From Desulfobacteraceae bacterium (GTDB taxonomy: Bacteria; Desulfobacterota; Desulfobacteria; Desulfobacterales; ETH-SRB1), in NCBI GenBank assembly GCA_013792055.1, contig VMSQ01000036.1, positions 1-37,502 on the forward strand: a DNA stretch of 37,502 nt, written 5' to 3'. Shown here piece after piece: positions 5,746-37,502 of the stretch. Under the pieces are notes generated by a model. It ran no database searches, had not been told where the DNA came from, and worked only from the letters and a program-made list of their open reading frames with translations. Position 1 is the first letter of the stretch, and each line of letters begins with the position of its first letter. The position numbers and the translations under genes were made by a program.

Positions 5746-5832
5746 GCCGGAGTGGTGAAACTGGTAGACGCAGAGGATTCAAAATCCTCCGGACGCAAGT
5801 CCATCTCGGTTCAATTCCGAGCTTCGGCACCA
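5746..5832 (+). tRNA. tRNA-Leu (anticodon CAA), CCA encoded
   Basis: The acceptor GCCGGAG (5746-5752) pairs with CTTCGGC (5822-5828) with one G:T wobble, followed by discriminator A and encoded CCA (5830-5832). The anticodon arm is GAGGA-TTCAAAA-TCCTC, giving anticodon CAA. The long variable arm (class II) and the T loop TTCAATT complete a leucine tRNA, 87 nt with CCA. Confidence 0.95.
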
Positions 5833-5840
5833 AAAAAGCA

Positions 5841-5880
5841 AAAAGGGTTAACAAATTAAATTCTGTTAACCCTTTTATTT
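5841..5880 (+). terminator. Strong intrinsic terminator, probably bidirectional
   Basis: The arms AAAAGGGTTAACA (5841-5853) and TGTTAACCCTTTT (5864-5876) form a perfect 13-bp stem with a 10-nt loop, ending in a T-rich run. It is placed between the plus-strand tRNA-Leu and the converging minus-strand gene ending at 5911, and the A-rich left side lets it serve both strands. Confidence 0.9.
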
Positions 5881-15951: not shown

Positions 15952-17458
15952 TTATCTGACTTTCTGGAGATTATATTTTGAAATAAGTCGGGACAGATAT
16001 GTTCTTTGTATACTAATCGCTTTTGCAGCTTCGCTTCTGTTCCCTTTAGTATGTCTGAGGTTCAAAGCAATAAACTCTTTCTTAAAGTTGTTAACGGCAT
16101 CTTCCATCGTTAATCCCACCCGCATACCAGAGTCCATTGGCCTTGAGGAAAGAATTGGTAAATCTTCCGGCAAAATCTCCTTGCCGTTTCCCATAACCAC
16201 TGCCCGCTCTATGGCGTTTCTCAATTCTCTAATATTTCCCGGCCAGTCATATTCCATCATATTTGTCATTGATTTTTCCGAAATTGTTAAATACGGCAAC
16301 CCCCTTTCCTGTTTGAAGATATCGAGAAAATATTGGGCAAGCAGGGGAATATCTTCCTTTCTCGCTCTTAGGGAGGGCATATGAATCTGAACACCATTAA
16401 GGCGATAATATAGATCTTCTCGAAACAGGCCCGCAGAGACCGCCTCGGCAATGTTTCTGTTTGTGGCCGAGATGACCCTTACATCGACGAAGATTGATTT
16501 ATTGCCCCCAACTCGATAAAATAAGTCCTTCTTGCAATACATGAAGGAGTTTTGCCTGCATCGCAGGGCTCATCTCTCCTATCTCGTCCAGAAAGATGGT
16601 GCCGCTATCTGCAAGTTCAAATTTTCCGATCTTCTGGCGCATAGCCCCTGTATAAGCCCCTTTTTCATGACCGAACAGTTCATCTTCCAACAGGGTTTCC
16701 GGCAAGGCAGCACAATTCAGAAGAATCATGGGCTTATCCTTCCTGGGGCCGGCCCAATGGATTAACCTTGCCAGCAATTCTTTTCCGGTTCCGCTCTCTC
16801 CCAAAATAAGAGTGCTTATTGTTGAGTTTGCGATCTTATGAGCATCAGATATGACTTGCCTTAAGGCCCTGCTATCTCCAACCATCTGGTACTTGACAGC
16901 AAGTTGTTCTTTAAGATCGCTGACCTCTCTTGTAACAAGCTCAATTTTTCTGGCATTGCCAATAGCCAGCGCAGCCAGTTCGGCAAACACGGCCAATATT
17001 TTAACATCTCCTTCGCAAATCCGACTCCCGTCTATTTTATCAATAATTTCAACAACTCCTATTGTTTCACCCTTTACCTTCATCGGCACGCAAGCTATTG
17101 AACGAGTCTTAAAGCCTATGGACTCGCCAATTTCTTTGTACCAACGGGAATCCTTGTTGACATCAGGAACGAGAAGGGGTTCGCCTTTTTCTGCTACATA
17201 GCCGGCTATCCCCTGTCCCATCTCGATTTCAAAATTTTTGATATCATCCTTTTTCTTGCCTGTTGCCACCTTAAAATAAAGTTTTTTGGTTTTATGATCC
17301 ACCAGCAGAAGGGAACTGGCCCTAGCGTTCATCATCCTGGTAGCTGTTTCTACAATGAGCTCAAGAAGCTGGTCCAGGTTATTCACAGATGAGACCCATG
17401 TAGATATTTCTTTAAAACGATCTATTGAAATATCAGAATTTAAAAGTTCTTTATTCAT
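15952..17458 (-). pseudogene. Sigma-54-dependent activator (GAF-AAA+-Fis), split by a frameshift
   Basis: Two overlapping frames together encode one NtrC-class activator of about 500 residues. The first (17458 down to about 16526) has a GAF domain (about residues 15-180), Walker A GESGTGKE, the sigma-54 contact loop GAYTGA and Walker B FLDEIGEM, and stops eight residues after LLHVLQEG. The second resumes exactly where expected with [12 protein letters not shown], continues through ISATNRN and LYYRLNG, and ends in a Fis-type helix-turn-helix (NRSEAAKAISIQRTYLSRLI). Skipping one base at GGAC/TTA near 16524 restores a seamless family match, so it is a one-base insertion, a sequencing error, or less likely a programmed +1 shift. 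The target genes are not evident. Confidence 0.85.
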
Positions 17459-21702: not shown

Positions 21703-24700
21703 TTACTGGATGTCCCCTTTAGCCCCAAGTTCTTGGGCTCGCTGCAGAAAATCCTTCTTTGCCTTTGGCGGCAATTCCTTGAATTTTTCAAGCAACCACT
21801 CAACACTCAGGGCATCTAACCGCGCCCGCACTTTCCTAACTACAACTGCCGCGCGCGTAAGATGCGGATCTGTCACGAGGGGGGGAGGGGTGCGCACTCG
21901 ATTGTGGAAACGATTGGCTTCGTCTGCCAGCATGGCTGGAATACTTTCAACTTGGGCTTCTATCGACTCAATCCATGCTGTGCTAGTTCGCTTGCGACGT
22001 TTTGAAATAGCCTGGACGAAACCATCCATTGTGTCGTCAGGTAGCCATGGCGGCTCCTCTTCCCCAAGGGTGGCAACCCATTCCTTTCGAATCTCTTCAG
22101 CTAAGGTCTCGAACTCGTCCCAATTCAAGTTCTCGTCCGAGAGGCGTGTATAGTCCTTGTGGTATAGCCTGAGCGCTCGTCGCATGAGTTGCAGATCCTC
22201 AAGATCCCTAGACAGGTTTTCGAATGCACCAACCAACGACTCCACTTCTCCGAGGATAGAGTCTATGTCCTCCTCGGTTTGAATTTTGGTTTGCCAGAGT
22301 CGAGATGCACGCTTGACGGTCTCTGTTTCTGCATTCTTCAGTTTCGTTAAGAACCCTGAGAGTTGTGTGCGAATCTCGACAATCTCAGGCATTTGTATGC
22401 GGCCCGCAATGCCCTGCAGCTTTCTAGAATAGTTGTTGCCGACCTCAACAAGGCCTCGTATTTCCGCAATCCGCACAATGCGAATGGCATCGCCATGTGT
22501 GGTCAGCCATGAATTCACATCCCGCAGAAGCTGGTGGGCTTCTGCTATTGTTTCTGCTTTTCGGATCACCTGAAGCGTGTGCGTCTCCAACTCTTGAAAC
22601 TGCGGCTCCAGCCCCAGTTTTTTTAAGCTTCCTCCCACTATGCGGAGCATTTTGTGCTTGAAATCTCCTACAGATTCAGGAGCATCGTTCATAGGTGTCT
22701 GTTGGGATAGCCAGTCCGGGAAGAACACAATGATAGCTTGGCGAGCCCTCTCGTAGTGCGGTTGGACTTCAGCAATCTGGGAGTCAGCCCAAAGGGGTCC
22801 CTCGGCAGCCATTTTCTCACAGAGCTCTTTGAGGGCCACAGCTCCCCACGTCAACTTGCTGACATCACGATATCTTTCTCCTTTCTCCATCTTAGACATA
22901 GCCTCATCCTGCGCCTTCTCCATCTTTACCATCATTTCTGAGGACGTCAACGCCTGATCACGCAAATGCACCTCTTGGTACCCCAATAAAGGCGGAACTG
23001 GCACACGGTTCTTTAGCTCACAGGACCGTTCTAGACAGCTTTTGCGTGCAAGATGACTCTCGGCCTGCTCCCATTCATCTAAGAGCGTTTCCCATTCCGA
23101 GGACGTCTCGCCGAGAAGAATAAGGTCCACGCCATGAAGAGCCGATAAGTCAATGAATTTGCCTCGGAAAACTCCTTCCTGCACCCATTGGGAAATGGCT
23201 AATTGCTTCCCGTTCCGCACGGCAACGAGTTTGTCAACACGCGGTGCAACAAAAACACTCAAGAGAAGCCCCGCTGAAGCAATATTCCCGCCGTACGGAG
23301 GACGGCAAAGTTGACGGATAACATCCGCAACAGGCAATCGCCGTTCATCTGCTGCCAAAGCGTCATCCCATTTTTCCGTGATCGCACGTAAGGCTGGATA
23401 CGCAGGCCGCCTGGAAACATTACCGTTCTTTGTGAATATTCCCCACGTTTCCTTCAAAACCGTTACAGCCCTGTTCTTTGACTTAACCGGCTTTGCAATA
23501 GCCCCGTCGTAGTCAAGATTGCCAAGAAACAATTCGAGCGTGAGTTCCTGGCAAGTGTCAGCAGCATTCCCTCTTGCTGTACTGAAGCCGTCAAAGGGAA
23601 AAGGTATGGGAGTCTTGTATATCTTTGCGAACAACCCCGTTCCTGCTCGGCTGAGTCGTTGCATCTCCAACCCTTCTTTAAGTCCGGTAATATAGCGCCT
23701 TTGCTTCACCAAACTTTCGACTTGTTCACGGATCACCTTACGCAACTTTTCTTTGTGGGCGCCGATCAGATTACCAAACCTCACACGGTCCTCTTCGCTG
23801 AGTGATTCCTCAAGGACAGCAAACTCCGCCAAAGCCTGTCCCAATGTGCCGTTCTCGTCGCACAAGAGTACAATTAGAATTGGCAAGGCTGGCGCCCCAT
23901 ATTCTTGCGCTTTAGTCTTCAAGAGCCTCCGGGCGTCTGACACAATAGCAACCGGGTCTCGGCTTTGCTCAACATAGGTATATATAATCGTGCCCCGTGG
24001 ATCATCTACCGCCACGGCTCCAGCCCAACGATTGCTGGCAATCATGATCTGCTGAGGGAGATAGTCTAGATTGGATGTCACGGCTTGATAACGCCATTCT
24101 CGTGTCGTGATTCTGTTCTCTTCTGCGAAATCGCACTCTAGGTTACTGAGCAGATCACACCATTCGGCACTTTTGCTGGCGAACAGCTTTGCCTTTCCGG
24201 CTTCATCATAGGAACTCGCAACACGTTGGCGCACAAAAGACAGGAATTGAGTACGTGGGACCGCATCACCAAGAATGTCGAACGCTTTAAAGGCCTCGTC
24301 CCATTCCATGACGTTGTATTCTTCCTGAAGGAGTCTGACGCCGTCATACGCATCGCTGCGTTTCAGACCCGACAGTTCCCCCAACGCCTCGATTGCGTCG
24401 TCCTTGCCTGATGCTTGGAGGCCGAGTTTCGATGCCATGACAACAGCGCAGAGGAGATGCTGCAATTTCGGAGACAGACGTGATCCATGCTTTGCCATCA
24501 CCGAAGCGTAAGCGTGGGCAATGGCCCCTTGCTGGCCAGTCTCCTCAGAACTGATGAGCTCCTGTTGAAGAGCATCCGACCACAAGTCGGCTGGCGATAG
24601 CGACCAATTCCCAGCGTCAGGCACTTCCGCCTTTTCGTAACGTTGAAAAACATCGCCCAGCAAGGCAAGCGCAGATCGCTCCTGCAGGTGCTTTCCAGCG

Positions 24701-26001
24701 GAAGCAAGATAGAAGAGGAACCACGTAGAATAAGGTGACAGAGGCCAGCACCCCTTGCGAATAACACCATGAAACTGTTCGGAATCGCCCCAAAGGCTGT
24801 GGTTCTTCGACTGAGGAAACCATCGGGCAAGGTTCTCCATTATGACTGCCGAATCGCCTTTCGCCCTCTCGCCGTCAAACCACTTATCTAAAAGCTCATG
24901 TTGATACTTCTCGATAAGGCTCGCTATCAGTGTCTCCAGGTTGATGGACAGGTAGACCCGATTGGCTGACTGGTAACGAGTCACGTACCTCAGAATCTCA
25001 TTCTTGTGCTCAGGGGCTACGCGCTGTACGTATGCGTTCAGCTCAAACTGGATAAATCCCAAGAAGCATGCGCTATTTGCGTTCGCCTGTATTGCCTCAA
25101 ACAAGTCCTGCAGAACCCCACTGCCGGCGATCTGACTACGAACCGTTGCGAACTCGGTATATTTTCCAAACTCGTCAAACAGTACTATAAGGCATCGATA
25201 GGGCTTTCCTTTACCGCAAAACTCGCGAACCGTGACGTCAATGACATCCCGAACGGATTCTCCACTGAGCGCCCTAATAGGCATTCCTTGTGCTGCAAAG
25301 AAACCGTGTACCTTCGCGTAAGCTTGTTCATCATGTTGATCCAGGCCGGTGAGAATATCCTTGACACTCGTAGCTTCGCATGCCGCCAAAAGTTCCCTTA
25401 CGACTCCCTCATTCGACATTCGGATTAGGCTCGCGGCCTGACCAAATCTGGGCCGAAGATCATCCAAAGGCTTTGGGTCATGTCCGTCGGCTTTGAGGGT
25501 CCGCACAATCTGCTTCGTGATCTCGGCGGTAAGGTCAAAACTCTGCATTCCGTTTAGGGTAAGAGCCAGACACGGCTGTCGTGCCTCCTGCAGCAAGACC
25601 CGGATGTCGCATCCTATTCCGGCATCTGCGGTCTCTATGGCGGAAAGCACGTTCTGGGCGCTCTCTCCATCAGGCACACTGAGTAGACTCGCAAGCGTTA
25701 GCCCCAAGTGCGATTTGCCAGTGCCATATCCGGCTATAGCCAGCGTAAATGGCTGATCCTCCAACCCATAGCATCTTCGAACTACAGCGTAGGCGAGAGT
25801 TGCTGTATCCATGAGACGATGCCCATGTCCGCTGCCCACATCTTCCTGCTGGACCCCGTGGTACTTCGGACCATGGAAAACGAATGCTTGACTGGCCGCA
25901 TTGGATTTTGCCTCATCCGTGCCAAACCAACTTATACTGACCGCTCCATTGAATAAGCGATCGCCTCGGAAGCGAACGATGTCATTAAGCCGTTGAGGCA
26001 T
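21703..26001 (-). CDS. sspC: SspC-like ATPase of the single-strand phosphorothioation system
   Basis: The chain has 1432 residues from ATG 26001, which is preceded by AAGGAGG with a short 4-nt spacer; an ATG at 26016 overlapping the sspB stop would add five residues. The N-terminus (RLNDIVRFRGDRLFNGAV) is followed by Walker A GYGTGKSH at about residue 91-98 and a probable Walker B in LIVLFDEFGKYTEF near residue 275, so it is a P-loop ATPase. The last 350 residues are mainly charged helix, probably coiled coil. In characterised SspABCD systems SspC is the ATPase that cooperates with SspB and SspD to insert sulfur into one DNA strand. Its place right after the DUF4007 gene supports this; I assign by context, motif and size, not by alignment. 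Confidence 0.75.
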   Translation of the reverse strand: MPQRLNDIVRFRGDRLFNGAVSISWFGTDEAKSNAASQAFVFHGPKYHGVQQEDVGSGHGHRLMDTATLAYAVVRRCYGLEDQPFTLAIAGYGTGKSHLGLTLASLLSVPDGESAQNVLSAIETADAGIGCDIRVLLQEARQPCLALTLNGMQSFDLTAEITKQIVRTLKADGHDPKPLDDLRPRFGQAASLIRMSNEGVVRELLAACEATSVKDILTGLDQHDEQAYAKVHGFFAAQGMPIRALSGESVRDVIDVTVREFCGKGKPYRCLIVLFDEFGKYTEFATVRSQIAGSGVLQDLFEAIQANANSACFLGFIQFELNAYVQRVAPEHKNEILRYVTRYQSANRVYLSINLETLIASLIEKYQHELLDKWFDGERAKGDSAVIMENLARWFPQSKNHSLWGDSEQFHGVIRKGCWPLSPYSTWFLFYLASAGKHLQERSALALLGDVFQRYEKAEVPDAGNWSLSPADLWSDALQQELISSEETGQQGAIAHAYASVMAKHGSRLSPKLQHLLCAVVMASKLGLQASGKDDAIEALGELSGLKRSDAYDGVRLLQEEYNVMEWDEAFKAFDILGDAVPRTQFLSFVRQRVASSYDEAGKAKLFASKSAEWCDLLSNLECDFAEENRITTREWRYQAVTSNLDYLPQQIMIASNRWAGAVAVDDPRGTIIYTYVEQSRDPVAIVSDARRLLKTKAQEYGAPALPILIVLLCDENGTLGQALAEFAVLEESLSEEDRVRFGNLIGAHKEKLRKVIREQVESLVKQRRYITGLKEGLEMQRLSRAGTGLFAKIYKTPIPFPFDGFSTARGNAADTCQELTLELFLGNLDYDGAIAKPVKSKNRAVTVLKETWGIFTKNGNVSRRPAYPALRAITEKWDDALAADERRLPVADVIRQLCRPPYGGNIASAGLLLSVFVAPRVDKLVAVRNGKQLAISQWVQEGVFRGKFIDLSALHGVDLILLGETSSEWETLLDEWEQAESHLARKSCLERSCELKNRVPVPPLLGYQEVHLRDQALTSSEMMVKMEKAQDEAMSKMEKGERYRDVSKLTWGAVALKELCEKMAAEGPLWADSQIAEVQPHYERARQAIIVFFPDWLSQQTPMNDAPESVGDFKHKMLRIVGGSLKKLGLEPQFQELETHTLQVIRKAETIAEAHQLLRDVNSWLTTHGDAIRIVRIAEIRGLVEVGNNYSRKLQGIAGRIQMPEIVEIRTQLSGFLTKLKNAETETVKRASRLWQTKIQTEEDIDSILGEVESLVGAFENLSRDLEDLQLMRRALRLYHKDYTRLSDENLNWDEFETLAEEIRKEWVATLGEEEPPWLPDDTMDGFVQAISKRRKRTSTAWIESIEAQVESIPAMLADEANRFHNRVRTPPPLVTDPHLTRAAVVVRKVRARLDALSVEWLLEKFKELPPKAKKDFLQRAQELGAKGDIQ

Positions 26002-26012
26002 ATGGCCTCCTT

Positions 26013-26861
26013 TCATAGCATATCGTCATAGATGCGCCCCCAAGTCTCATCAGGCCCAGATTTCGGGATCAGAAGCCAAGGCTCCATATGTCGGTCAACC
26101 TCAATCATTCCCTTGCGCTCAACGAGTTCCAGCGCCCTCTGCAGGCTGGAGACATCCCACCCCGGAATTGTGCGCCACCCGGCTGTGGCATCGAGATCCG
26201 TAATCGGCACCTGTCGCCGTTTCGGAAAATGGTCGCTCATCAACTGAAGTATCCAAGCGCCATAAGCAAGCCCATGCTCCACTCCGATAGGTGCTGGCCG
26301 TCGCACAATCATGCCCTCTATCACGGACAGCACGCCACACATCTTAAAAGCGGCATCTTCCTCGTATGTCCCGACCAGAGGCCCTATGAGACCGCTTTTC
26401 TCGACCCCATAAATGACACTTAAATGGGTCTCAAGCTTTGTCCTGGTAAAATTCATCCCGAGAGCCTGTGTCCCGGCAAAGAAGGTGTGGTACCACACGT
26501 CTGCTCCGGCGAGGGGACCGCATAGGTTTAAGTGTGCTATCCACTGGCTGACACTGACCTTCAGGTAGGGATCTTCCAGCAGCACGATCCGGCCAAAAGG
26601 TGTCAAATCCGGCTTCTTGATTGAAGACCGGTCCTGTCCCGCCAATCGTATCAGCCCCATCCCTCTGCAATAATCCAAGATGGCTGGAACCTTACCGCTT
26701 GACGTGCCCGTCGGAATACCCGTAGCAGCGGCAATGGCCTGATAGTCTCCCTCCTTGCCGGAAGCCGCATATCGCAACATGGCGTTGATGTACTGGCGCT
26801 CAGGCTTAAACGTCTTGTGGAAGTTCCGCGGCAGGCGACTATGTTCTGCTGCCTCAGGCAT
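26013..26861 (-). CDS. sspB: SspB-like DUF4007 protein (DNA phosphorothioation)
   Basis: The 282-residue protein matches DUF4007. Its N-terminus has RNFHKTFKPERQYINAMLRY, followed by a helix-turn-helix-like segment (YQAIAAATGIPTGTSSGKVPAILDYCRGMGLI) and later YHTFFAGTQALGMNFTRTKLE. In the Ssp system SspB is described as a DNA nickase that opens the strand to be sulfur-modified. The start ATG overlaps the sspH stop by 8 bp and the stop almost touches sspC, so translation is coupled. The length fits the family. I see no catalytic residues that I could name with confidence. Confidence 0.82.
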   Translation of the reverse strand: MPEAAEHSRLPRNFHKTFKPERQYINAMLRYAASGKEGDYQAIAAATGIPTGTSSGKVPAILDYCRGMGLIRLAGQDRSSIKKPDLTPFGRIVLLEDPYLKVSVSQWIAHLNLCGPLAGADVWYHTFFAGTQALGMNFTRTKLETHLSVIYGVEKSGLIGPLVGTYEEDAAFKMCGVLSVIEGMIVRRPAPIGVEHGLAYGAWILQLMSDHFPKRRQVPITDLDATAGWRTIPGWDVSSLQRALELVERKGMIEVDRHMEPWLLIPKSGPDETWGRIYDDML

Positions 26862-29800
26862 TGAACCCTCGCTCCTCCAGCGAGGTTATCCTGATGCGCT
26901 GTGCTTGAAAGACCAATCTCCCTGTCGCTTCGTTCAAGCTCCGGCCCAAGGACCAGCACTCACCCTTTTGGAGGGAAGCTAGTCGAGTTGCCCAATCCTG
27001 TATGCTGACGTTGCTGATGGCGTTGTGTAGAAGTTGAGCGTGTTCGCGCATTTCATTCTCGGTCGGTTTGAAAAACAACTTATGTTCGGCCTGAAAAAAA
27101 CGACTAACCCGGGCATCATTGACTCCACCAACTCCCTTCACTGTTTGTGTCGCTGTGATCATGGCAAGCCCGTGTTTTCGACCTTCCGTAAGGTATTTAG
27201 CGACAGGAGCATCGGGACCGAGATCGAGGTTCTGTACTTCATCAAGCACGACTACCCGAGGTGTGTCCTCGTTCCCATGGCTGCTGACAAAGGCATACAG
27301 ATCCCACAAGACGAACTCAATCAATGCGCGTGCCGAATGTTTGTCGACCTTAAAGAACTGAAACACGTGACAGCGGCAACCCGCATCGCTGAAAAGCTCT
27401 TGCCAGCCAATTCCATTCACGTCGTCCGAGAAGGGATTGCTCTGGATGAACGGTTTCAACTTGCTAACTGTCGTCCGCACTGTGCCGGTCCCATGAATTT
27501 CATCCTCGATGTAGGTCTGAAGGATCTCAAGGAGTCTATCTAAGCTGAAGTTGTCGCCAAACCGCTCGACACCCTCGCTGATAGCATCAATCAAAATGGG
27601 GAATTGTTGATTGCCAAGCTCATAAACGCTCTTGAATATTGAGGCTACCCGCTTGCCGATTGTTATGGGGCTATCCCGAAATTCCATTCCGGCTTCATGG
27701 CTGATCTGTGCTTTGAATGGCCGAATCGGCAATGGCGCTCGCTGGATGAAGTGTTGCGTCGGCTTTAAACATGTCGCGGTCGCTTTTTCCAGCTTACTTG
27801 GAATAAAACCATCTGTATAGTCGATGATCAGGGAGTTTTGTCCAACACGCCCAAGCTCGCTCAACAGGCATTGAATAGCATAAGTCTTTCCCATGCCGGA
27901 GGTTCCAAAAACCAGCATATGGCGGTTTGCAAGCTCTGGGTGCCCAAACTCCCAGTAGACCGGTTTGCCCCCGCTGAGCGTCCTCCCCAACAGGATGCGA
28001 TTGGGAAACGGCTGGGGCTCTACTACGAGGCCTTTTTTAGCCTCCGTGATGATAGGAGGCAAAGCGCTTGGTTCATTACCTGGCGTCTCCTCAGGAATCA
28101 GACCCGTAGCAGCAGTCTGGGATTCAGAATATAGTTTTACATGTGAGGCCTCGGTTCGTTGCCTTTGAATTTGCGGTTCCTCTTGGTCTAGACTTGCCTC
28201 AGTAGGTTCCACATCTTCGCTTTCCTCGCCGTCATCTTGATCGGCCCACAACGGTGAGTCTTCATCGTCATCATCTCCGGGAGGCAATTCAATATCTTCG
28301 AGGCCATCACAGACATTACCAGGCCCTGCGGAAGCGAGGTTTTCCCACTCTGGCCAGGTCACTGGGAACCCCGTACCGTCCAATGCCAGCCTGCGCACGA
28401 ATTCGTTACCCATGACGTAGATGTCAGTTTTCAACTCGTCCGCTTCGCCTACCGTCCAACTCCCGATGCGCGTGGGGAGCGCTGCGTTACTGTCGCTCCA
28501 AAATGCGAATACTGCAGCGCCCCATTCGATCTCATAATTGCCATCGGCCAGTTGCTCCAGAGCCGAAAGAACCTCAGATTGTTCGATATTTTCAATTTCG
28601 GCTTTACTGGCGATTAACCTATGGAGCTGTAGCCACCAGTAGCGTTGATCAGGTCGGCTGTCTTCCCCTAATGCCCCATCACTCTTGTTGCGCGGGACAA
28701 AGGCCGGGACTAGCACGCGCAGACCGTTGTTGATTTGGGCTCGGGCTTTGATCAAGTGTTCTTCCGACTGCTGAGCCAGTTTGCATTCAATTAATCGGAT
28801 ACTTATACAAACGCGCTTGTTTTCATCTAACCATGCTGTCAGCCACATCAGATCAGGGCGGCTCTCGTTGTCCGCCAAGTCGAACCAGTGCCGATATGCG
28901 TCCAGCGAAACCAAATTGTCGCACAGCACCTTGCGTTTTTCGCGCAATATCTTGCGGGTCAACGAGTAGGCCATGAAATCACGAATGTAGTGGCCGACTC
29001 CGGTTGCACGCACAAGGGACAGCCCCGAAAGCTCACGAGCTTCGTGCAGCACGCTCTTGGCCACCGCCTGGCAGTCATCGCCGCTCCAGTTACATGCTGC
29101 ATACACCTCTTGAATGGATGCGGCCAGGCGCACGTGAATGTCGGCAAGCGAGAACTGCTCGGTTGAAATCGTATAATTGGCCTCGCCATGGGAACCTACC
29201 CCGGATCCGAATCCGATGATTTCGCGTTCGCGCCTATTTCCCCCGGCCGGAATCTTAATCAAGCGATCGTCCATATTTGGATCAATGCAAATCACCCATT
29301 CGGCCTTGGCATGCATGGCATCGATGACCCCCCGCCAAGGCGCGAAATCTCCTATGCCAAGAACAACGAATTCCCTGCCTGGCTGTACTCCTTGATTCTT
29401 GAGTCTATGCATGATTTGGGTGAGCAGCATGCCTATGTTGAACTGTAGATTGCTCATCACCCGTGAGCGCTTGTAACTGTCTGTAGGATGGCGCACCGCA
29501 CAACAGGACTTTTCCAAAATCGGGAATTTTAACGTCCTTGTGGTAATATCGAAAGGGGTGACCTCCGCAAACCTGTTGCCACCTTGGCCTGCACCGATGA
29601 AATCGTATAGCACCACGATGTCAGCCTCTAGACTGTCGTTGATAAGCCTTTGAAAGGACGAAAGTTGCACGGTCTGAACAATCCGATGAGCTACCGAAAA
29701 ACGGCAGCGACGGTAAGCCTGAAACTTGCTCTCTGTTTCCGCAGCCTCCCATCTTTCGCGCCATTGCTCGATCCAACGTGCTACATCCACGTCGTCGCCC

Positions 29801-32334
29801 GATTCGGTAAAGATAGTCACACCGATGGCGTAGGGCTTTCGACGCTCCGGCGATAGGACGTAATAGCGCCGGTCCTTCTCATCAGCGAGTTTGTTCAGAT
29901 ACTGGTGAACAGCGGCAATGACCGTTTGTATATCCTGGTTGCGGTAAACCGCCAGCGTCAAACCGTCTCGGGCGTGCGGATGCAGCCGGAAATAATCCGT
30001 CATCAGGCGAAAGAGCAGCTTTGACTCCCGACTCTCGCGGAACATTTCGGTGTCCGTTACCTCTTCTTCCTCGTTGACGCTGTCGTAACGTAAAAGGAGG
30101 CGGGTAGAAAGCGTTGCTTCGCTTTGCTCAGGAGAACCAATTCGATGAATCAATTCCTGACCCCGAATGTTGGTATCCAAGTTCAGGTCTTCGTTGTAAA
30201 GCAAACCGGCGATCGGTGATTGAATAGATGCGAGGTCGATGTAGCCATTCCAGATCTTCTCGGCGAACGCCTTGCGCCGGTCATCTCGTTGCTGTTCCGA
30301 AGCAACGGCAGCATTAAAGCAAGAGAACAGAAAAATAATCTTAGCCTCTAGCATTTCCAAGACGGCTGGGTGCAATACCGTCGCTACCCCGGAACGTTCA
30401 AAAGGTTCCGTTCCCCAAGCCACACCGAATTCCGCGCTGCGTCGTTGTACCACTAAAAAGGTACGCATCAACATCGCCAACATCTGTGATTCCGCCGTAG
30501 CACCGTCCTGGACCACTGATTCACATGCAGCAGTATAGGCCTGCCGCAACTGTGTCCATTCCTCACCGAAAAGCGCAGCATGCAGACCACTTATGTAGGC
30601 TGCAAAAACGAAACGAGCGTACCTGTCCGCCAATCGTTTCAGGTGGGGGAGCAAAACATCACCACTTGCCAACCATTCCCGCCCCAACAGGTTGGTCCAC
30701 TTGGCATCGTCCGGATGCGCGTCGCGAATGCAATGCAGCATGACGCGGCGAGTCTCTTCATCGTCAGTAGCGCGCAGAAGCTCTTCATAGTATGGAAGGT
30801 GGAATACAGGTAATTTCCACACTCCTTGATCTTCCTCCAGTGCATCCTTGGCCCAGTGGAGCAAGGCTTCCGCTATGCGATATGTCTGGATTTCCGGCAA
30901 TCGCCACGCGAATTTGCGGCGGTACGGTTTACCACCAGCCTCGTGCAAGAAGTAAACGGAGAACTCCAGTCGTGGTTCCGCAGTCTTGCTATAGCGGCAT
31001 GCAACTTCTTCGTCAGCGAGTCTGCAAGCAACGGGCACGATTTGCCCGTCAGCGCCTGACACCTCCACACGCGCTGCGACTAATTCATCCACGCCTCCCA
31101 GCAGGCGCATCAAGTACTGCCGCGCCAGATCGGTGCGATCAATTGCTGCGTCGGTTCTGTCCGCAGTATTTTCGTAATCGTGTTTAAATTGGTCACACGC
31201 GATCTCAACGCGTTGCAGCTCTGCATTGTTAAATCGTTTGTCGCGCTTGAAATCCCGGAACGTCTGCCAAAAAGCGTGCAATACCATCTCCACCGGGCTT
31301 CCCGAGAGCTTACGCAAACTCTCTCGTTCCGGTTTTTCCACCTTTCTTCGAAACTTCAATATCTTATCTATTATCGTTACAAAGTCGCACTGCCGCAATC
31401 TTTCTCGGTCGTCATGGTCTTCTGTCTGTATGTAGTTGTTCAACCCTTCCAGGAAAGCTTCCCCCGTCTCATACGGGCCGCGCACATCATCATCGTCTAT
31501 TGGCAGTCCTGTATCTTCCCCCAGGTCAATGCTCTGCCTTATCTGCCTGATTGCTTTCGCCGCTTTATCCCGTTCCTTCTTGTCGAGGAACAAGGTATAT
31601 GTAAAGAAAGCATGGGCTTTTTCGATGTATGGGCCCAACGTGACCCGTTTCCGTCCCAGTGGGAACCTGGTGAACTTTGGAAGTTGAAAAGACTCATATT
31701 GGCCAAGCATGATATGCTGCGCTTTACGGACCGTGCCCGCTGCGTTTAAATCCAGGGCATCCAACCATGCGCTGATCTGCAAGAGATCCGCACGGCCCTG
31801 CTCCAACAGCGGCTTCATCAAACGATCGAATTCTCTCAATTCGGAGGGTTGGTCATAAGCAATGCCAATGCTTTGCAATTTGGCCCATGTCCAGGATTGG
31901 AAACTACTCCTCATTTCAACCTGCCAGACCGTTTCCAGGTCACACCGGTAGAAATCCTCCAGGCTGCCGGCATCTGTCACGCGGTCAGCGCCACAAAGCA
32001 CAAGCAAGCTGACTTTCCCTGGAACTGCGGGTAGATTGCTGCGGTAGTAGGTCAGGTTGCCTCGGTCGTCCAGCCAGTCCTGGGCTCTTGCCTTGGCCAA
32101 ACCTGATGAAGACCAGTCATTCGTCACTACTTGAGCGATTTTCAAAGTCAGATCTACCGTCTTATCGGCAGTACATCTGCTGGCTACCGTTTCCGCCAAG
32201 TCCAGCGTAGCGCTTTCCGACAACGCAGGTACCATTACCAACAATCTCCTGCCAGCTACACCGTCCCATTGCAGCTTGATCTTTCTTACCTTCTTGTCGA
32301 GCGACTTCCACGCGGAGTCCGTAAAATAGCTCAT
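26854..32334 (-). CDS. sspH: SspH/DptH-like restriction ATPase with PD-(D/E)XK motif
   Basis: At 1826 residues this is the largest gene. The C-terminal 400 residues form a HerA/FtsK-like ATPase: Walker A GTSGMGKT at 1477-1484 and Walker B VVVLDEVQNL with D1698-E1699. Further upstream, RPDLMWL (D1161) and IECKLA (E1183-C-K1185) give the spacing of a PD-(D/E)XK nuclease core. An acidic Pro/Glu-rich linker (about 1370-1440) separates them. The N-terminal 1100 residues are not recognised. In the SspABCD-SspFGH defence system SspH belongs to the complex that damages DNA lacking the PT mark. It follows sspG by 16 bp and overlaps sspB. DptH of the Dnd/Dpt system is the closest known counterpart by architecture. 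Confidence 0.78.
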   Translation of the reverse strand: MSYFTDSAWKSLDKKVRKIKLQWDGVAGRRLLVMVPALSESATLDLAETVASRCTADKTVDLTLKIAQVVTNDWSSSGLAKARAQDWLDDRGNLTYYRSNLPAVPGKVSLLVLCGADRVTDAGSLEDFYRCDLETVWQVEMRSSFQSWTWAKLQSIGIAYDQPSELREFDRLMKPLLEQGRADLLQISAWLDALDLNAAGTVRKAQHIMLGQYESFQLPKFTRFPLGRKRVTLGPYIEKAHAFFTYTLFLDKKERDKAAKAIRQIRQSIDLGEDTGLPIDDDDVRGPYETGEAFLEGLNNYIQTEDHDDRERLRQCDFVTIIDKILKFRRKVEKPERESLRKLSGSPVEMVLHAFWQTFRDFKRDKRFNNAELQRVEIACDQFKHDYENTADRTDAAIDRTDLARQYLMRLLGGVDELVAARVEVSGADGQIVPVACRLADEEVACRYSKTAEPRLEFSVYFLHEAGGKPYRRKFAWRLPEIQTYRIAEALLHWAKDALEEDQGVWKLPVFHLPYYEELLRATDDEETRRVMLHCIRDAHPDDAKWTNLLGREWLASGDVLLPHLKRLADRYARFVFAAYISGLHAALFGEEWTQLRQAYTAACESVVQDGATAESQMLAMLMRTFLVVQRRSAEFGVAWGTEPFERSGVATVLHPAVLEMLEAKIIFLFSCFNAAVASEQQRDDRRKAFAEKIWNGYIDLASIQSPIAGLLYNEDLNLDTNIRGQELIHRIGSPEQSEATLSTRLLLRYDSVNEEEEVTDTEMFRESRESKLLFRLMTDYFRLHPHARDGLTLAVYRNQDIQTVIAAVHQYLNKLADEKDRRYYVLSPERRKPYAIGVTIFTESGDDVDVARWIEQWRERWEAAETESKFQAYRRCRFSVAHRIVQTVQLSSFQRLINDSLEADIVVLYDFIGAGQGGNRFAEVTPFDITTRTLKFPILEKSCCAVRHPTDSYKRSRVMSNLQFNIGMLLTQIMHRLKNQGVQPGREFVVLGIGDFAPWRGVIDAMHAKAEWVICIDPNMDDRLIKIPAGGNRREREIIGFGSGVGSHGEANYTISTEQFSLADIHVRLAASIQEVYAACNWSGDDCQAVAKSVLHEARELSGLSLVRATGVGHYIRDFMAYSLTRKILREKRKVLCDNLVSLDAYRHWFDLADNESRPDLMWLTAWLDENKRVCISIRLIECKLAQQSEEHLIKARAQINNGLRVLVPAFVPRNKSDGALGEDSRPDQRYWWLQLHRLIASKAEIENIEQSEVLSALEQLADGNYEIEWGAAVFAFWSDSNAALPTRIGSWTVGEADELKTDIYVMGNEFVRRLALDGTGFPVTWPEWENLASAGPGNVCDGLEDIELPPGDDDDEDSPLWADQDDGEESEDVEPTEASLDQEEPQIQRQRTEASHVKLYSESQTAATGLIPEETPGNEPSALPPIITEAKKGLVVEPQPFPNRILLGRTLSGGKPVYWEFGHPELANRHMLVFGTSGMGKTYAIQCLLSELGRVGQNSLIIDYTDGFIPSKLEKATATCLKPTQHFIQRAPLPIRPFKAQISHEAGMEFRDSPITIGKRVASIFKSVYELGNQQFPILIDAISEGVERFGDNFSLDRLLEILQTYIEDEIHGTGTVRTTVSKLKPFIQSNPFSDDVNGIGWQELFSDAGCRCHVFQFFKVDKHSARALIEFVLWDLYAFVSSHGNEDTPRVVVLDEVQNLDLGPDAPVAKYLTEGRKHGLAMITATQTVKGVGGVNDARVSRFFQAEHKLFFKPTENEMREHAQLLHNAISNVSIQDWATRLASLQKGECWSLGRSLNEATGRLVFQAQRIRITSLEERGFNA

Positions 32335-32350: not shown

Positions 32351-33976
32351 TCATTCTGAATTCCCATTCGTTGCCGGATTTTCGACCAAAGCACACGAAT
32401 CTGAGAGTTCTATCAGCAGGCCCGCGGCCTTCAGCATCTCTTGAAACCACGCATCACAGTGGCTTCCAAGATGGACATCACCCACACCGTCCGCCCAAGT
32501 GCTGGCACGGGCAAAACCATCAGCGTCAAACACCAGCCCGTGTCTCGCCTCCACAAGTTCCTTGAAGCTGTCATAGGTAAGCCGGCCGCCGACCGGAACG
32601 GTAGTCACTACCAGTAAGCGCAGCAATTGTTCGTTCAGGGTGAACCGCGCTCCGGGCCCGCGTCGCGGCACCAACAAGCCAATACGTTTTGCCGTGCTAA
32701 CGAACAGCTTACCGCCATAACTCGTATCGGCATTCTTCAGTATCTTATTTCTATCATCTACATTGGAAGGCAGTTCTACCTTATCGCAACGGATGGCGCG
32801 GTAGACCAACTTCTCTGTAGCCTTGGCCGTGTGCTGGGAGATACGTTTGACCGGCAACCGCTTTTCATCCGGAGCAGATACTGCCAGGCGGTAGCCGGGC
32901 CATGAGACTGTGCGTTCAGGCGGGCAATGACGGACGCTTTGCACCGATAGACTGCGCAACACCTGCATGGCACAGGCAATTTCGAGCAATTCCAGCCGTT
33001 CGATGACATCCAAATTAGCCATGCACAGGCGCAGCAGGTCAACAGCAAATAGATAGCCTTCCTGCCAACTGTCCGCTGGACACCAACCGGCATCAACAAA
33101 ACGCGGTGTGTGATCTCGCATGTCTGTTGCTTTCGGTGTATCACGCTCAACGCCTGAGTCAATGAACTCGGCGATGTCAGTCACCGTCTGCGGACAATGG
33201 GTCAGCAATCGCCCCAGTTCGCGCTGCAATGCCGCATGCAGCCACGCTGGGTCTTGTTCCCGCGGTTCGATCTCAACCCCGCTTTCTCTTACCCACTCCA
33301 CCACCGATTCCGGCTTCTGACGCAGGGCATTGCATAATTGCAGGTACCACACCTCGCCCCCGCGTCCGAGAAAACGATGCTTGTTCATCGTGAAATAGAC
33401 TTGGAGGTTCCCAATCGCATCATCCCAATCTGCAGGAGGATTCCGTCGAGCGGCTGTCTCATTCCAAATGGTTTCTCCGGCTATGATACCAGGACAAACG
33501 GGCAGGAAGCTTTGAGCACACCACGTGCGGCCGGATCCTGCCCCTTGGAAACCAAGGAATAGATTTTCCAGTGTCCGCAGTACATCGTTCTCAGCGCCGC
33601 CTTCCATCACCCTAATGTTGGTCTGCAGCCGCTCCAACAATTCCTTGTAATGTTGCCGGTGCGTTTCGTGACGCGAATCCAGCCGTGATGCCCCCATGAA
33701 AGCGAAGAGTTTCAGGTTGAGCCGCGCCTTCGGGGCATATTGAAGTGTCCCCATGTCCGGCCATCCTGTAAGGGTCTCTACGTCTGGCAGTGGAGTGGAA
33801 AACGGCACGCCTCCGTTAGTAATCCGTTTGGAGGAGGCCATCAACAATAGGAATTCGACCAGCAGTTCCGTCGGGGACTGATCCTTGAACAGTCGATTTC
33901 CAAACATTTGGATGGCCGGATTGTCGGGATTTTCATCATAGGCTATGCCGATTGGAAATGATTCACAAGACATCAT
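32351..33976 (-). CDS. sspG: SspG/DptG-like restriction protein
   Basis: The 541-residue protein begins MMSCESFPIGIAYDENPDNP and overlaps the sspF stop by 14 bp, so translation is coupled. It has no signal peptide or membrane segment, and no P-loop that I can see. Near residues 440-500 a segment with KRIGLLVPRRGPGARFTLNEQLLRLLVV could be a winged-helix unit. In the characterised cassette SspG is required together with SspF and SspH for protection against phage, but its own activity is not known to me. The assignment rests on position and size between recognisable SspF and SspH genes. Confidence 0.68.
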   Translation of the reverse strand: MMSCESFPIGIAYDENPDNPAIQMFGNRLFKDQSPTELLVEFLLLMASSKRITNGGVPFSTPLPDVETLTGWPDMGTLQYAPKARLNLKLFAFMGASRLDSRHETHRQHYKELLERLQTNIRVMEGGAENDVLRTLENLFLGFQGAGSGRTWCAQSFLPVCPGIIAGETIWNETAARRNPPADWDDAIGNLQVYFTMNKHRFLGRGGEVWYLQLCNALRQKPESVVEWVRESGVEIEPREQDPAWLHAALQRELGRLLTHCPQTVTDIAEFIDSGVERDTPKATDMRDHTPRFVDAGWCPADSWQEGYLFAVDLLRLCMANLDVIERLELLEIACAMQVLRSLSVQSVRHCPPERTVSWPGYRLAVSAPDEKRLPVKRISQHTAKATEKLVYRAIRCDKVELPSNVDDRNKILKNADTSYGGKLFVSTAKRIGLLVPRRGPGARFTLNEQLLRLLVVTTVPVGGRLTYDSFKELVEARHGLVFDADGFARASTWADGVGDVHLGSHCDAWFQEMLKAAGLLIELSDSCALVENPATNGNSE

Positions 33977-36281
33977 TTACCTCCAGTATCCCGTCAAGGA
34001 TCGTGTATTGTTGCCGTCTGAACGTATGGTCGGTTTTCAGGCGAACCAGCATGACGTCGGAGCGGGTCTCCTTGGCGCGTTGTAGCACTTGCGTTTTGAA
34101 GCGTTCCAGCCTTTCCACATAAGCGGGCTGTAGAATTTCACCTACTTCGCCATAATGCCGCATGACCACATAGTCCAGAAATGGCAGCGTCAATAAAAGG
34201 TTTGCACCATTAATGCGGCCGCGCCCTTTAAGTTCCAAATCGGTACGGCCTCCCCCGGCAGCGTTCTGACTCCGTGTTAATTCAAGTGCTGTTTCATTGC
34301 TCCAATCGATCTGCGCCAGTACTACCTGTGCGCTTTGCCGAATTTTAGTCTTGCCGCGGCTCAGGGTAATGTAGAGCCGGCGGTCATGCTCAGTCACGCC
34401 CTCAGGCAGACGGACACCGGTAAAGTGCTCCTGTAAGACATGAAATATGCGACGCTCAAGCACGTTCCTTTCCGTCATTTCCAGGCGTGCACCCGGGCTC
34501 TGCCATTCCTGCCAGCACAGGATGGTTGAAGAGTTGAGGAACTGAATCAAGTACGATACCTCCCCCTTCGGGAAATCGTAGAGGAAGTAAAGCATACGGC
34601 GGACCTGTTCTCGCGCTTGGTCGGGACTTAAACCGGGTTTGTTGTCATTGCCCGGTCCTGACCCGTGTTCCCGAAGCAGATCGAACTCCGCGTCGCAATC
34701 ATCTACACCCAAGCGGAAATACCGGTCCCTCAACTTGAGCCAAAGCTTCCGTTCCCATCTTGGGCATGGCCTTTCTCCAAAACCTTGCTTGCTGATTTCC
34801 GAGACCGCCCGCATCTGCAGTGCTCCCGGATGCCCCTCCTTGCCATTGTCCCCGAAGAAGCGGTTGAAGAACATGAATTCCGCTTTAAGTGGAGATTGGT
34901 GCTTCTCCCGCATCTCAGCAATGTCACTCTCCTCAAGCCCGGAGGTCACCAGATACGCGAGATGCTCGGTAATCTGGCGTAATGTCAACCGGGTGCCGTA
35001 TTCGTACATGCGCCGGTACGCGAGAAAAATCCGATTGAAGACGATGCTCTGTCTGTGATTGATTAAATCGACATTCAAACAGATGGGGCAGTTGACGCGG
35101 CAGGGAAGTTCTTTGCAAAACGCCCAGTGCTCCGGTGCGACCATTCGCGCGAAAATTTGCCGCGCGAACTCCAGGTTGTCCATTCTCGCCAAGTTGACAA
35201 CCCAAAACCGAGTTCCGCCCAGCGCCAGTTCAGCCTCGCCGCGCTCGGTGCCTATGGAGTTCAGCAGTTCACTCTCGATTTTCACTCTGGACATACCGAA
35301 GGTTGCCGCCTGACCGCGCAGCATGTCGAGCAGCGTGCCGGTGTTTGATACAAGCAGAAACCGGCGCTCGTCTCCCAGCAGCTCCTGAACCAAGGCCGGG
35401 TCTTCTTCTCGGCGGCGCTCGCTTAAGTCCTTCATTATGGTGATCCCGGTTCCGGGCAAATCCTCCCTTGGACGCAACGGTTGTGGCAGGGACTGCTCAT
35501 TTGAAATGCCCGATAGCTGCTTGTATATCTCCAAGGCAATCGTAGATTTACCGTCCCCTGCGTGGCCAGTGAGGATAACATGTCGCCCTTCCAGCTTCCG
35601 CAGCTCGGCAAGAATGGCTTGTGCCAAAGGATGCGGAACATGAAGGTAGGCAAAGAATGGGTTACAGGCTTGGGACTCGGCAAAGGCGTTATCATTGCTG
35701 GCGTTTAGCCGCTGCAGGGAATTTAGGTAGCCCACGAACTGATTGCTCGTTTCAATGGGTTTGTCTGAAAAAGACAGGCGCTGGAGGACTTGGGTGCCTT
35801 GTTTCTGACTCTCCTGTAAATGCGCATCCCTGCGAGATTCACGGCCGGCAAGAATGCACTTTAAGATTCTTGATTCAATGACCGGGCAAGAAGTCTCGTC
35901 TTTTAGCGCATTTAAAAATGGCTCACTTAGCTCTGCATACTGTACCAACTCGGCGAGTTCGCTAGCGCCACCTACAGTACTTGCCTTGTCCAAGTCAGCC
36001 TCACGGCCAGGAAAAGGAATGAGATTCCAAAATGAGCTGCTGGCAAGGTGGAAGAATGGGTTGTGGGGGCGGTCCCGGTCATCTTCCTCGCCGAATTTCC
36101 TTAGAAAGGTGCTGAATTCTGCTCTTAGCATGGCATTGAAGTAGATTCGCTTGTCCGAGACTTTCCCACTTCGTAGTAGATTCAAGACTGAAAGCAGAAG
36201 TAAATACTTATGTGGCTTAAAGCCTTTACCAGGCCTACTGAGCGAGTAAAGTTCTTCTAGAATATCAGAAAGGCTACTCAT
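33963..36281 (-). CDS. sspF: SspF/DptF-like P-loop protein with N-terminal sulfur-binding-like domain
   Basis: The 772-residue protein has three parts. Residues of about 15-95 (KPHKYLLLLSVLNLL, then IYFNAMLRAEF, then PFFHLASSSFWNLIP) resemble the DNA sulfur-binding domain of ScoMcrA-type PT-dependent endonucleases. A Walker A, GHAGDGKS, lies at 239-246. Further on is a Cys cluster (CKELPCRVNCPICLN), as expected for a zinc site in DptF relatives. AAGGAG about 8 nt upstream fixes the start, 35 bp after the desulfurase remnant. Within the SspFGH effector, SspF would supply ATPase activity and, I infer, reading of the PT state of DNA. The sulfur-binding call is by eye and needs a profile search. 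Confidence 0.72.
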   Translation of the reverse strand: MSSLSDILEELYSLSRPGKGFKPHKYLLLLSVLNLLRSGKVSDKRIYFNAMLRAEFSTFLRKFGEEDDRDRPHNPFFHLASSSFWNLIPFPGREADLDKASTVGGASELAELVQYAELSEPFLNALKDETSCPVIESRILKCILAGRESRRDAHLQESQKQGTQVLQRLSFSDKPIETSNQFVGYLNSLQRLNASNDNAFAESQACNPFFAYLHVPHPLAQAILAELRKLEGRHVILTGHAGDGKSTIALEIYKQLSGISNEQSLPQPLRPREDLPGTGITIMKDLSERRREEDPALVQELLGDERRFLLVSNTGTLLDMLRGQAATFGMSRVKIESELLNSIGTERGEAELALGGTRFWVVNLARMDNLEFARQIFARMVAPEHWAFCKELPCRVNCPICLNVDLINHRQSIVFNRIFLAYRRMYEYGTRLTLRQITEHLAYLVTSGLEESDIAEMREKHQSPLKAEFMFFNRFFGDNGKEGHPGALQMRAVSEISKQGFGERPCPRWERKLWLKLRDRYFRLGVDDCDAEFDLLREHGSGPGNDNKPGLSPDQAREQVRRMLYFLYDFPKGEVSYLIQFLNSSTILCWQEWQSPGARLEMTERNVLERRIFHVLQEHFTGVRLPEGVTEHDRRLYITLSRGKTKIRQSAQVVLAQIDWSNETALELTRSQNAAGGGRTDLELKGRGRINGANLLLTLPFLDYVVMRHYGEVGEILQPAYVERLERFKTQVLQRAKETRSDVMLVRLKTDHTFRRQQYTILDGILEVNDVL

Positions 36282-36316: not shown

Positions 36317-36610
36317 CTAATCTTCACTGACACTTATAACATCTCGAACAGTCTCCGAAATTGCTTGCGCGCCCATGCAAACCTCATCTGCAGTATTATA
36401 GCGACCAAGAGAAAGCCGGACTGTCGAGTATGCCTCGTCCCGCAATACCCCAAAGATATGTGATGGCGCAACCGCGCCTGAGGTGCATACAGACCTAACA
36501 CTCATGCACACAGTCGATGTTCTGCTAATTAGAACATCAGTAGGCACACCGGGAAAAACAACGCTTGCAGTACCTGGTAATTGAGATAGAAATGTGTGTC
36601 TTCTTTGGTC
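36317..36610 (-). pseudogene. sspA: 3' remnant of SspA/DndA cysteine desulfurase
   Basis: About 97 codons after an in-frame TAA encode the C-terminal end of a class V aminotransferase-fold cysteine desulfurase. RRHTFLSQLPGTASVVFPGV matches the region before the active site, SVRSVCTSGAVAPSH carries the catalytic Cys in its loop, and STVRLSLGRYNTADEV is the conserved tail. The pyridoxal-phosphate lysine and the whole N-terminal three quarters are missing, and there is no ribosome site near any start. The fragment begins 30 bp after the sspD stop and ends 35 bp before sspF. It seems to be what is left of an intact sspA between sspD and sspF. It cannot desulfurate cysteine by itself. Confidence 0.88.
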
Positions 36611-36639
36611 TTACTCAATTCAAATCTCCATTAAATATT

Positions 36640-37502
36640 TTACAGGTTACAGACAAAACAGAAATCTTCATGTTTATCATCAAGGACAGAATCGAGGACC
36701 TCTATAAGAGGCCTGTTTGGGAGACACCTCTTTTTCTGGTGCATCATCTTTTTATGGTCTGCAATGATCTGCTCTTTTCGAGCTACTAACTCCAGCAAGG
36801 ATTCCCGCTGATTCCAGAAATATTTCCGCCCATCATCGTGTTCTTCTTCGTATCTGACTGATTTTTCAAAAAGATCAGGGTGAATTTCAGACAGTCTCAC
36901 CCATTCAATCTTTCGCTGAAAAAAACAGAAGTAGCAACCCGATCTTGAACGCCAGTTGTAATATTCAGGCATCCCAATTCCGCTCTCTTCGATGATCCTG
37001 AATATGTCTCTTTTTACAAGACCTTCTTTTATGAAAGGAAATACAGGTTTGATATTTGGTTTTGTGGAAATATAGCCAGCGCGATCCTCATCCGCTCTCA
37101 ATGCAATGAAACTAATGGCCTCGTCATTGCCAACGAATCTTTCGATAGGGATTAGTTTCAACTGCTCTGTGCACCATCTTATTTGAGGAGAAGGCAGAAA
37201 CCCCCTTTTTACTGCTAGCCAATGATCGAAACCTCTCTTGGCTTCAAGTATTTTTATTTTCTTGCCGAGCAATATTTCAAGTTTTTTTAGGTAAGCATAT
37301 GTTTCAGGCAATTCCATATGTGTGTCACAAAAGAAATATTCGATATCAGGCACTCTGTCTTTTAGATACAGAGCCAATGCAGTGCTGTCTTTGCCTCCTG
37401 AGAGACCCATTATGTGGCGTAATTTCTTATTCCCCAACCTTATGCTCCTTTGTAGGTTCCTTTGCACTTGATTTAGAGATTTCGCTTCGCTTATGAAATA
37501 TT
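36640..37502 (-). CDS. sspD: SspD-like PAPS-reductase-family protein, 5' end outside window
   Basis: A GTG at 37467 gives 275 residues, but the frame stays open to the window edge (ISEAKSLNQ precedes it), so the true start may lie outside. Counted from the GTG, the PP-loop SGGKDS is at 23-28, WCTEQLK carries C99, GCYFCFF has C178 and C181, and the extreme C-terminus has CFVC (C270, C273). These are the marks of the PAPS-reductase/ATP-pyrophosphatase fold shared with DndC, plus cysteine pairs that could hold an iron-sulfur cluster. SspD activates DNA phosphate with ATP for sulfur insertion. Its stop is 30 bp before the sspA remnant. The codons are more AT-rich than in sspF-sspC. Confidence 0.82.
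   Translation of the reverse strand, partial: YFISEAKSLNQVQRNLQRSIRLGNKKLRHIMGLSGGKDSTALALYLKDRVPDIEYFFCDTHMELPETYAYLKKLEILLGKKIKILEAKRGFDHWLAVKRGFLPSPQIRWCTEQLKLIPIERFVGNDEAISFIALRADEDRAGYISTKPNIKPVFPFIKEGLVKRDIFRIIEESGIGMPEYYNWRSRSGCYFCFFQRKIEWVRLSEIHPDLFEKSVRYEEEHDDGRKYFWNQRESLLELVARKEQIIADHKKMMHQKKRCLPNRPLIEVLDSVLDDKHEDFCFVCNL

What the first reader, a model, noticed from the sequence alone, without database searches (positions are those of the whole stretch)
36317..36640. Cysteine desulfurase reduced to its last ~97 codons inside the modification operon
The remnant keeps the catalytic-Cys loop and tail but has lost the PLP-binding part. It sits with normal operon spacing between sspD and sspF, which implies a recent internal deletion of sspA. 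If the system is active, sulfur must come from a chromosomal IscS/NifS-type enzyme, as reported for some dnd systems lacking dndA. If not, the island may be modification-dead while the DNA-damaging FGH genes remain intact, a potentially self-harmful state worth testing.
Basis: partly seen in the sequence, partly recalled or inferred. Interest (0 to 1): 0.65.

Follow-up and report, generated by a model that had tools for sequence, protein, structure and literature searches.

The report
Desulfurase gene tail, a recombination scar
A bacterial DNA-sulfur defence operon carries the dead tail end of a sulfur-donor gene, stuck by recombination to the first few codons of a different gene; it is most likely a harmless scar from swapping defence parts, because most related loci examined also lack this donor gene and the cell has a housekeeping one.

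Summary
The remnant is real: minus strand 36580-36317 encodes the last 87 residues of an SspA-type cysteine desulfurase without the PLP-binding part. It is not an sspA shortened in place. The 63 bases after the sspD stop match (54/63) the start of an unrelated gene, X, that follows sspD in the nearest relative found, G232; the match falls to chance at about 36577, where sspA homology begins, out of frame with X. The scar is thus X-5' joined to sspA-3', followed by sspF. One relative, G168, has an intact sspA between sspD and sspF, so the tail probably came in as the upstream flank of an sspFGH effector block. SspF is 22% identical to G232 over residues 1-180 (a sulfur-binding reader domain) and 89% after, so writer-effector joins fall in this zone. 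The tail keeps 8 of 15 conserved positions and is almost certainly non-functional. A missing local sspA is ordinary (1 of 9 related loci holds one) and the genome has its own NifS-type enzyme. Purifying selection on sspD and sspFGH argues against a dead, self-harming island, but sspB and sspC were not found in this fragmented genome.

The parts
36640..37500 (-). sspD (PP-loop PT-modification enzyme), 5' end at or beyond the contig end
   Evidence: PADLOC SspD E 2.9e-108; 78% identical to G037; contig ends at 37502
36578..36639 (-). 5' scar of gene X: spacer plus about 14 codons if the TTG at 36618 is its start, cut off at the junction
   Evidence: 54 of 63 bases identical to G232 after its sspD, Smith-Waterman 81 against shuffle mean 16.7, maximum 33 of 2000; KEDTHFY shared with X of G037, EDTHFY with X of L115; TTG position
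36577..36585 (.). recombination junction X::sspA (zone of uncertainty)
   Evidence: fitted end of X homology at 36577; sspA homology starts at the Leu codon 36580-36578
36317..36580 (-). sspA 3' remnant, 87 codons plus stop; pseudogene
   Evidence: keeps 8 of 15 conserved positions after the junction
35742..36281 (-). sspF, N-terminal sulfur-binding (PT-reader) domain, residues 1-180
   Evidence: PDB 8h0l SBDHga1 E 3.2e-19; NF045808 E 5.5e-9; 38 of 169 aligned residues identical to G232
33963..35741 (-). sspF core, residues 181-772
   Evidence: PADLOC SspF E 3.6e-28 starting at residue 180; 527 of 592 aligned residues identical to G232
32351..33976 (-). sspG
   Evidence: PADLOC SspG E 9.7e-21
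26854..32334 (-). sspH (translocase-like C-terminus)
   Evidence: PADLOC DndH E 5e-45, SspH E 2.4e-19; DUF87/TrwB-type matches
26013..26861 (-). SspB-like protein (called B2 here), part of the effector block
   Evidence: weak SspB matches (2.5e-4); DUF4007 just under its cut-off; 90% identical in G232
21703..26016 (-). weakly SspC-like large protein (called C2 here), part of the effector block
   Evidence: weak SspC matches, best 3.1e-9; 88% identical in G232

Best explanation
The feature is a recombination scar, not a working gene and not an sspA deleted in place. A writer head (sspD and, presumably, sspB and sspC beyond the contig end) that was natively followed by gene X was joined within X, near codon 14, to the 3' end of an sspA that stood just upstream of an sspF-G-H(-B2-C2) effector block. 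The leftover is X-5' :: sspA-3', out of frame, and it has decayed since. The PT system, if active, takes sulfur from the housekeeping NifS-type enzyme. Shown: the two-gene make-up of the scar, the junction, the loss of the PLP part, the conservation of the neighbours, the presence of a NifS-type gene. Inferred: that the sspA tail travelled with sspF, the order of events, activity of the system, and the role of NifS.
For: Left side: 54 of 63 bases after the sspD stop match G232's X, then identity falls to chance (the end point was fitted, the first 60 bases give 52). In the codon-aligned stretch 36612-36583 four of ten codons differ, three of them silently. X is complete in G037 (284 aa) and in L115 (71% identical), each directly after sspD. 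Right side: SspA homology starts at the junction. The best match to the tail among 379 genomes of the order, the own one apart (G168, E 2.5e-17, 41%), is an intact sspA between sspD and an SBD-kinase-SspF gene, ending 10 bases before it. The tail fits the SspA profile better than a NifS profile, 67.8 against 54.3 bits. Module joins: SspF of window and G232 agree at 38 of 169 residues up to 180 and 527 of 592 after; G232's GC rises from 0.33 to 0.53 at that boundary; four-fold sites agree at 35 of 67 in sspD but 855 of 1149 in SspF core, G and H, Fisher p 1.7e-4. Local sspA is usually absent: found in 1 of 9 related loci. Print: sspBCD with iscS and sspFGH of Vibrio anguillarum FF-93 works as a defence (PMC8092258, passages).
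Against: No donor locus with a close sspA-SBD-sspF pair was found: G168's SspA is about 40% identical to the tail and its SspF carries a kinase. The tail and reader domain have GC 0.49 and 0.48 against 0.545 for the SspF core, so they need not share one origin. No locus seen here shows X and sspA together, so direction and number of events are not fixed. In V. cyclitrophicus FF75 chromosomal iscS could not replace sspA (PMC7188994, passages), so NifS rescue is not certain. sspB and sspC were not found in the genome. The four-fold contrast rests on 67 sites in sspD. Against L115 the DNA match of the X scar is not significant (score 27, shuffle maximum 37).
Confidence: 0.75

Rival explanations
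1. Deletion inside an ancestral operon sspD-X-...-sspA-sspF: one event removed most of X and the front of sspA, with no exchange between loci.
For: Needs only one deletion; both genes point the same way; sspA between sspD and sspF exists in G168, and an SspA-like gene lies within 1 kb downstream of sspD in 3 of 80 loci of named genomes.
Against: 0 of the 3 X-bearing loci (G037, G232, L115) show sspA in the DNA held; L115 starts inside sspD, so its upstream side is unseen. Head and effector genes differ in divergence from G232.
Confidence: 0.18
2. One reading: recent internal deletion of a local sspA that stood right after sspD.
For: A desulfurase tail lies between sspD and sspF; in G168, L100 and L108 an intact SspA-like gene follows sspD directly.
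Against: No sspA N-terminal codons follow sspD in any of the three frames; the DNA there is X.
Confidence: 0.03
3. Assembly chimera between two different PT loci in the metagenome.
For: The genome is in 340 contigs at 3.3% estimated contamination; GC changes near the junction.
Against: No N in the window; one pair of contigs of this genome shares an exact 141-base end, which suggests that joins need long exact overlaps, while the junction offers a few bases at most; G232 independently has the same sspD-X start next to the same sspFGH block.
Confidence: 0.04

Closest known systems
SspABCD-SspFGH phosphorothioate defence (Vibrio anguillarum FF-93 genes used with iscS; PMC8092258)
   Same: sspD with sspF, sspG, sspH; no functional sspA seen in the locus; a NifS-type desulfurase elsewhere in the genome
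   Different: SspF carries an N-terminal sulfur-binding domain (PADLOC SspF starts at residue 180); an SspB-like and a weakly SspC-like gene follow sspH; sspB and sspC proper are not in the assembled genome; a dead sspA tail is present
   Same: sspA between sspD and sspF, pointing the same way; B2 and C2 genes after sspH
   Different: sspA intact (395-residue frame); SspF fused to a kinase; no match to X
Dnd/Ssp loci without dndA/sspA, thought to be served by housekeeping desulfurases (PMC10853773: DndA in 1384 taxa, 32% of those counted there)
   Same: Desulfurase gene missing from the locus
   Different: Here a piece of it remains, joined to another gene

Membership tests
SspA/DndA cysteine desulfurase | PLP-binding N-terminal domain with the Schiff-base lysine | tested here: not met
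   Only profile positions 305-372 of 374 are present; no N-terminal codons in any frame
SspA/DndA cysteine desulfurase | Catalytic cysteine in its loop | tested here: met
   Cys aligned with the loop Cys of G168 SspA and of the genome's NifS, but the loop reads SVRSVC and 7 of 15 conserved positions are lost
SspBCD-SspFGH system | sspD | tested here: met
   PADLOC SspD E 2.9e-108; 5' end cut by the contig end
SspBCD-SspFGH system | sspB and sspC | tested here: inconclusive
   Contig ends inside sspD. SspC: none in the genome; the profile rings in 5 of the 6 other genomes searched, 2 of these 5 (G232, G168) having rows in the profile. SspB: none in the genome; rings in 6 of the 6 others, G232 having a row in the profile and G272 only weakly, at its B2 gene
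SspBCD-SspFGH system | sspF, sspG, sspH as open frames | tested here: met
SspBCD-SspFGH system | A cysteine desulfurase serving SspD | tested here: inconclusive
   NifS-type gene present; whether it serves SspD is untested
SspBCD-SspFGH system | PT in DNA and PT-dependent self-protection | not testable with these tools
   Needs chemistry and genetics
Sulfur-binding domain (PT reader) | Sequence homology to a solved SBD | tested here: met
   8h0l SBDHga1, E 3.2e-19 over residues 18-140; binding itself not testable

The most novel reading that the evidence does not exclude
Probability: 0.35. Interest if true: 0.5.

Novelty: new member of a known kind. Interest (0 to 1): 0.3.

Why it matters
The remnant itself matters little: it explains away an apparent recent loss of function. 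What may matter is the junction. It shows where a PT writer and a PT-sensing effector were spliced, and the contrast with G232 (reader domain 22% identical, the rest of SspF 89%) suggests that the sulfur-reading domain of SspF is an exchangeable part. That could be tested by asking whether each reader domain prefers the PT motif of its own writer.

Tried and rejected
An sspA elsewhere in the genome: PF00266 gave 8 places. Two are the halves of the NifS-type gene; one (C211) I take to be SerC from its sequence (recalled, no call names it); five weak partial matches (68-137 family positions in frames of 384-564 aa) I did not identify. No second copy of the tail DNA and no other contig sharing the window's last 201 bases.

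A still-coding tail: rejected because of the lost conserved positions, a three-residue gap and no start at the sspD end. In that count two SspA sequences cut by the end of their loci (L087, L147) score lower than the tail; the lowest uncut ones keep 11 of 15, G168's SspA 12, the median 15.

What X is: Pfam, NCBIfam and PADLOC name no family for it; 2 of 379 genomes of the order hold it, plus L115 among named genomes.

A nearer SspF: 22 of 389 genomes of the order and 12 of 385 of the phylum match at E 0.001 or better, the own genome counted in both; none is closer than G232 (75%).

Rows left out: L055 (G303) was fetched but holds no sspD and is not among the 9 related loci. Of these, L025 is cut soon after sspD and L054 starts just before it.

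Papers: PMC8092258, PMC7188994 and PMC10853773 were seen as found passages only. Six searches (one search found nothing) showed, in titles and starts of abstracts, nothing about an sspA remnant or a scar of this kind; the other papers were not opened, so this is no proof that it is unreported.

After the filing check: the SspF identity was recounted at residue 180 (22%, before given as 26% for a split at 189), the X scar was recounted as about 14 codons (before 20), the sspA-sspF gap of G168 as 10 bases, its sspA overlap with sspD dropped (the likely ATG is 8 bases after the sspD stop), and SspB was searched.

Full report
What was checked. The minus-strand frame 36610-36317 is open for 97 codons. 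Its C-terminal part matches the end of cysteine desulfurases: PADLOC SspA 305-372/374, DndA 306-372/372, NifS 310-376/379. A profile from 50 SspA/NifS-like proteins of sspD loci scores it 67.8 bits, one from 19 NifS/IscS-like proteins found elsewhere in genomes of the order 54.3 bits (the two sets were sorted by where they came from, not by tested function), while the best of 3000 shuffled frames scores 3.8. Pfam gave no match to the 95-residue stretch, and PF00266 did not list it in the genome, as expected of so short a tail. The remnant is real and nearer to SspA than to NifS. It keeps the loop Cys, but 8 of 15 conserved positions after the junction, where the median of the compared proteins is 15 and G168's SspA keeps 12.

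The window is the whole contig: G000:C115, 37,502 bases, in a 340-contig genome, 95.78% complete, 3.3% contamination. The contig ends in the 5' end of sspD, so sspB and sspC, which precede sspD in relatives, would lie beyond it. SspC was not found in the genome; the profile rang in 5 of the 6 other genomes, two of which (G232, G168) had given it rows; the sixth, G272, has a contig that starts at sspD (L054). SspB was not found either; its profile rang in all 6 others, in G272 only weakly and at the B2 gene. This is absence from a fragmented assembly, not proof of loss.

What the scar is made of. After the sspD stop, the window and G232 (the closest relative found by SspF, 75%) agree at 54 of 63 bases (the end point was fitted) and then at the level of chance, 20 of 70 bases counted from offset 60 on. 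The Smith-Waterman score of the first 80 bases is 81, against a mean of 16.7 and a maximum of 33 in 2000 dinucleotide shuffles. In the same test G037 scores 35 (shuffle maximum 29), and L115 scores 27, which at least one shuffle exceeds (maximum 37); for L115 the link is at protein level (EDTHFYLDN). In G037 and L115 this is the start of a complete gene X (284 aa in G037; 71% identical in L115) directly after sspD. In G037 it is followed by a small P-loop-like protein, a large protein with weak BrxC/D and SspC matches, a PglZ-like protein (E 1.1e-5) and a HerA-type helicase; the frames in L115 look alike by eye. In G232 X is recognisable to about residue 134, with two TGA codons near its end, and meets sspF. 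In the window X is cut about 14 codons after a TTG at 36618 and continues as sspA from the Leu codon at 36580-36578. The X and sspA frames differ, so no fusion protein results.

Where the sspA part may come from. Among 379 genomes of the order the best match to the tail outside the own genome is G168 (E 2.5e-17, 41%), an intact sspA between sspD and an SBD-kinase-SspF gene. Its first ATG lies 8 bases after the sspD stop and its end 10 bases before sspF. Of nine related loci with sspD besides the window (L024-L027, L050-L054), one, G168, shows sspA in the fetched DNA; L025 is cut soon after sspD and L054 starts just before it, so these two say less. Of 80 sspD loci from named genomes (the best 80 of 550), 49 hold an SspA/NifS-like gene of at least 250 aligned residues and 3 have it within 1 kb downstream of sspD. 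The named record that matches G037's contig in length and gene content is a Desulfobacteraceae MAG (L078), so the order is taken to be Desulfobacterales (inference).

SspF's reader domain. Residues 18-140 of SspF match the solved sulfur-binding domain SBDHga1 (8h0l, E 3.2e-19) and NF045808. The best PADLOC SspF model begins at residue 180. Against G232, residues 1-180 agree at 38 of 169 aligned positions and residues 181-772 at 527 of 592; in bins of ten the change falls between 180 and 181. SspG, SspH, B2 and C2 are 83, 89, 90 and 88% identical to G232, SspD 78%. Four-fold sites agree at 35 of 67 in sspD and at 855 of 1149 in SspF core, SspG and SspH (Fisher p 1.7e-4). G232's GC is 0.37, 0.35 and 0.33 in sspD, X and the reader domain, and 0.53 in the SspF core; the window's is 0.41 in sspD, 0.49 in the tail, 0.48 in the reader domain and 0.545 in the core. 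Both loci thus look like joins between a lower-GC writer head and a higher-GC effector block, at different points. That the two joins are independent is an inference; a later exchange of the reader domain in either lineage would also fit.

Is the system dead? sspD, F, G and H are open and have dN/dS of 0.12, 0.28, 0.20 and 0.16 against G232 (the sspF value includes the unlike reader domain, and sspD dS is 1.09, near saturation). This averages over the whole time since the split and cannot date the scar. The genome has a NifS-type desulfurase in two contigs that overlap by exactly 141 bases, with Lys and Cys motifs; the gene before it looks like NifU (recalled). In print, FF-93 sspBCD with iscS plus sspFGH protects E. 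coli JM109 from phages, and sspFGH without PT harms the cell (PMC8092258, passages). In V. cyclitrophicus FF75 iscS does not replace sspA (PMC7188994, passages). DndA occurs in 32% of taxa in one survey of Dnd systems (PMC10853773, passages), which also describes variable N-terminal domains on DndF, kinases and wHTH among them, and equates the SBD with a wHTH domain. Against this background a missing sspA is ordinary and a self-harming island the less likely reading.

Verdict. A decayed recombination scar joining the start of gene X to the end of sspA, within an SspBCD-SspFGH-type locus that probably uses NifS.

Noticed in passing
window 21703-26861: An SspB-like gene and a large, weakly SspC-like gene follow sspH and are conserved in G232 (90 and 88%), G076, G168, G302 and G272: possible further parts of the effector block.
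   Followed up: partly
L026, L027, L052 (SspF genes): In these relatives SspF is a protein of about 1500 residues with a sulfur-binding domain, a MAD6/PglW-like kinase region and the SspF core; window, G232 and G076 SspF show no kinase match.
   Followed up: partly
L024:8991-16693 and L115:583-8281: Gene X opens a different sspD-linked set (small P-loop-like protein, large weakly BrxC/D-like protein, PglZ-like protein, HerA-type helicase) that looks shared by G037 and the SURF_34 MAG; in G037 a GIY-YIG-like and a DndB-like gene follow.
   Followed up: partly
L125:6417-6605: A 63-residue piece of an SspA N-terminus lies at the start of sspC in a Gemmatimonadetes MAG, with no sspB match in the locus: perhaps another desulfurase remnant.
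   Followed up: no
L051 (G076), 1172-5863: sspC is interrupted: two halves flank a gap of about 1.2 kb with a 270-aa frame on the other strand.
   Followed up: no
window 15952-17458: A sigma-54 activator (GAF, AAA) is split over two overlapping frames, as if frameshifted.
   Followed up: no
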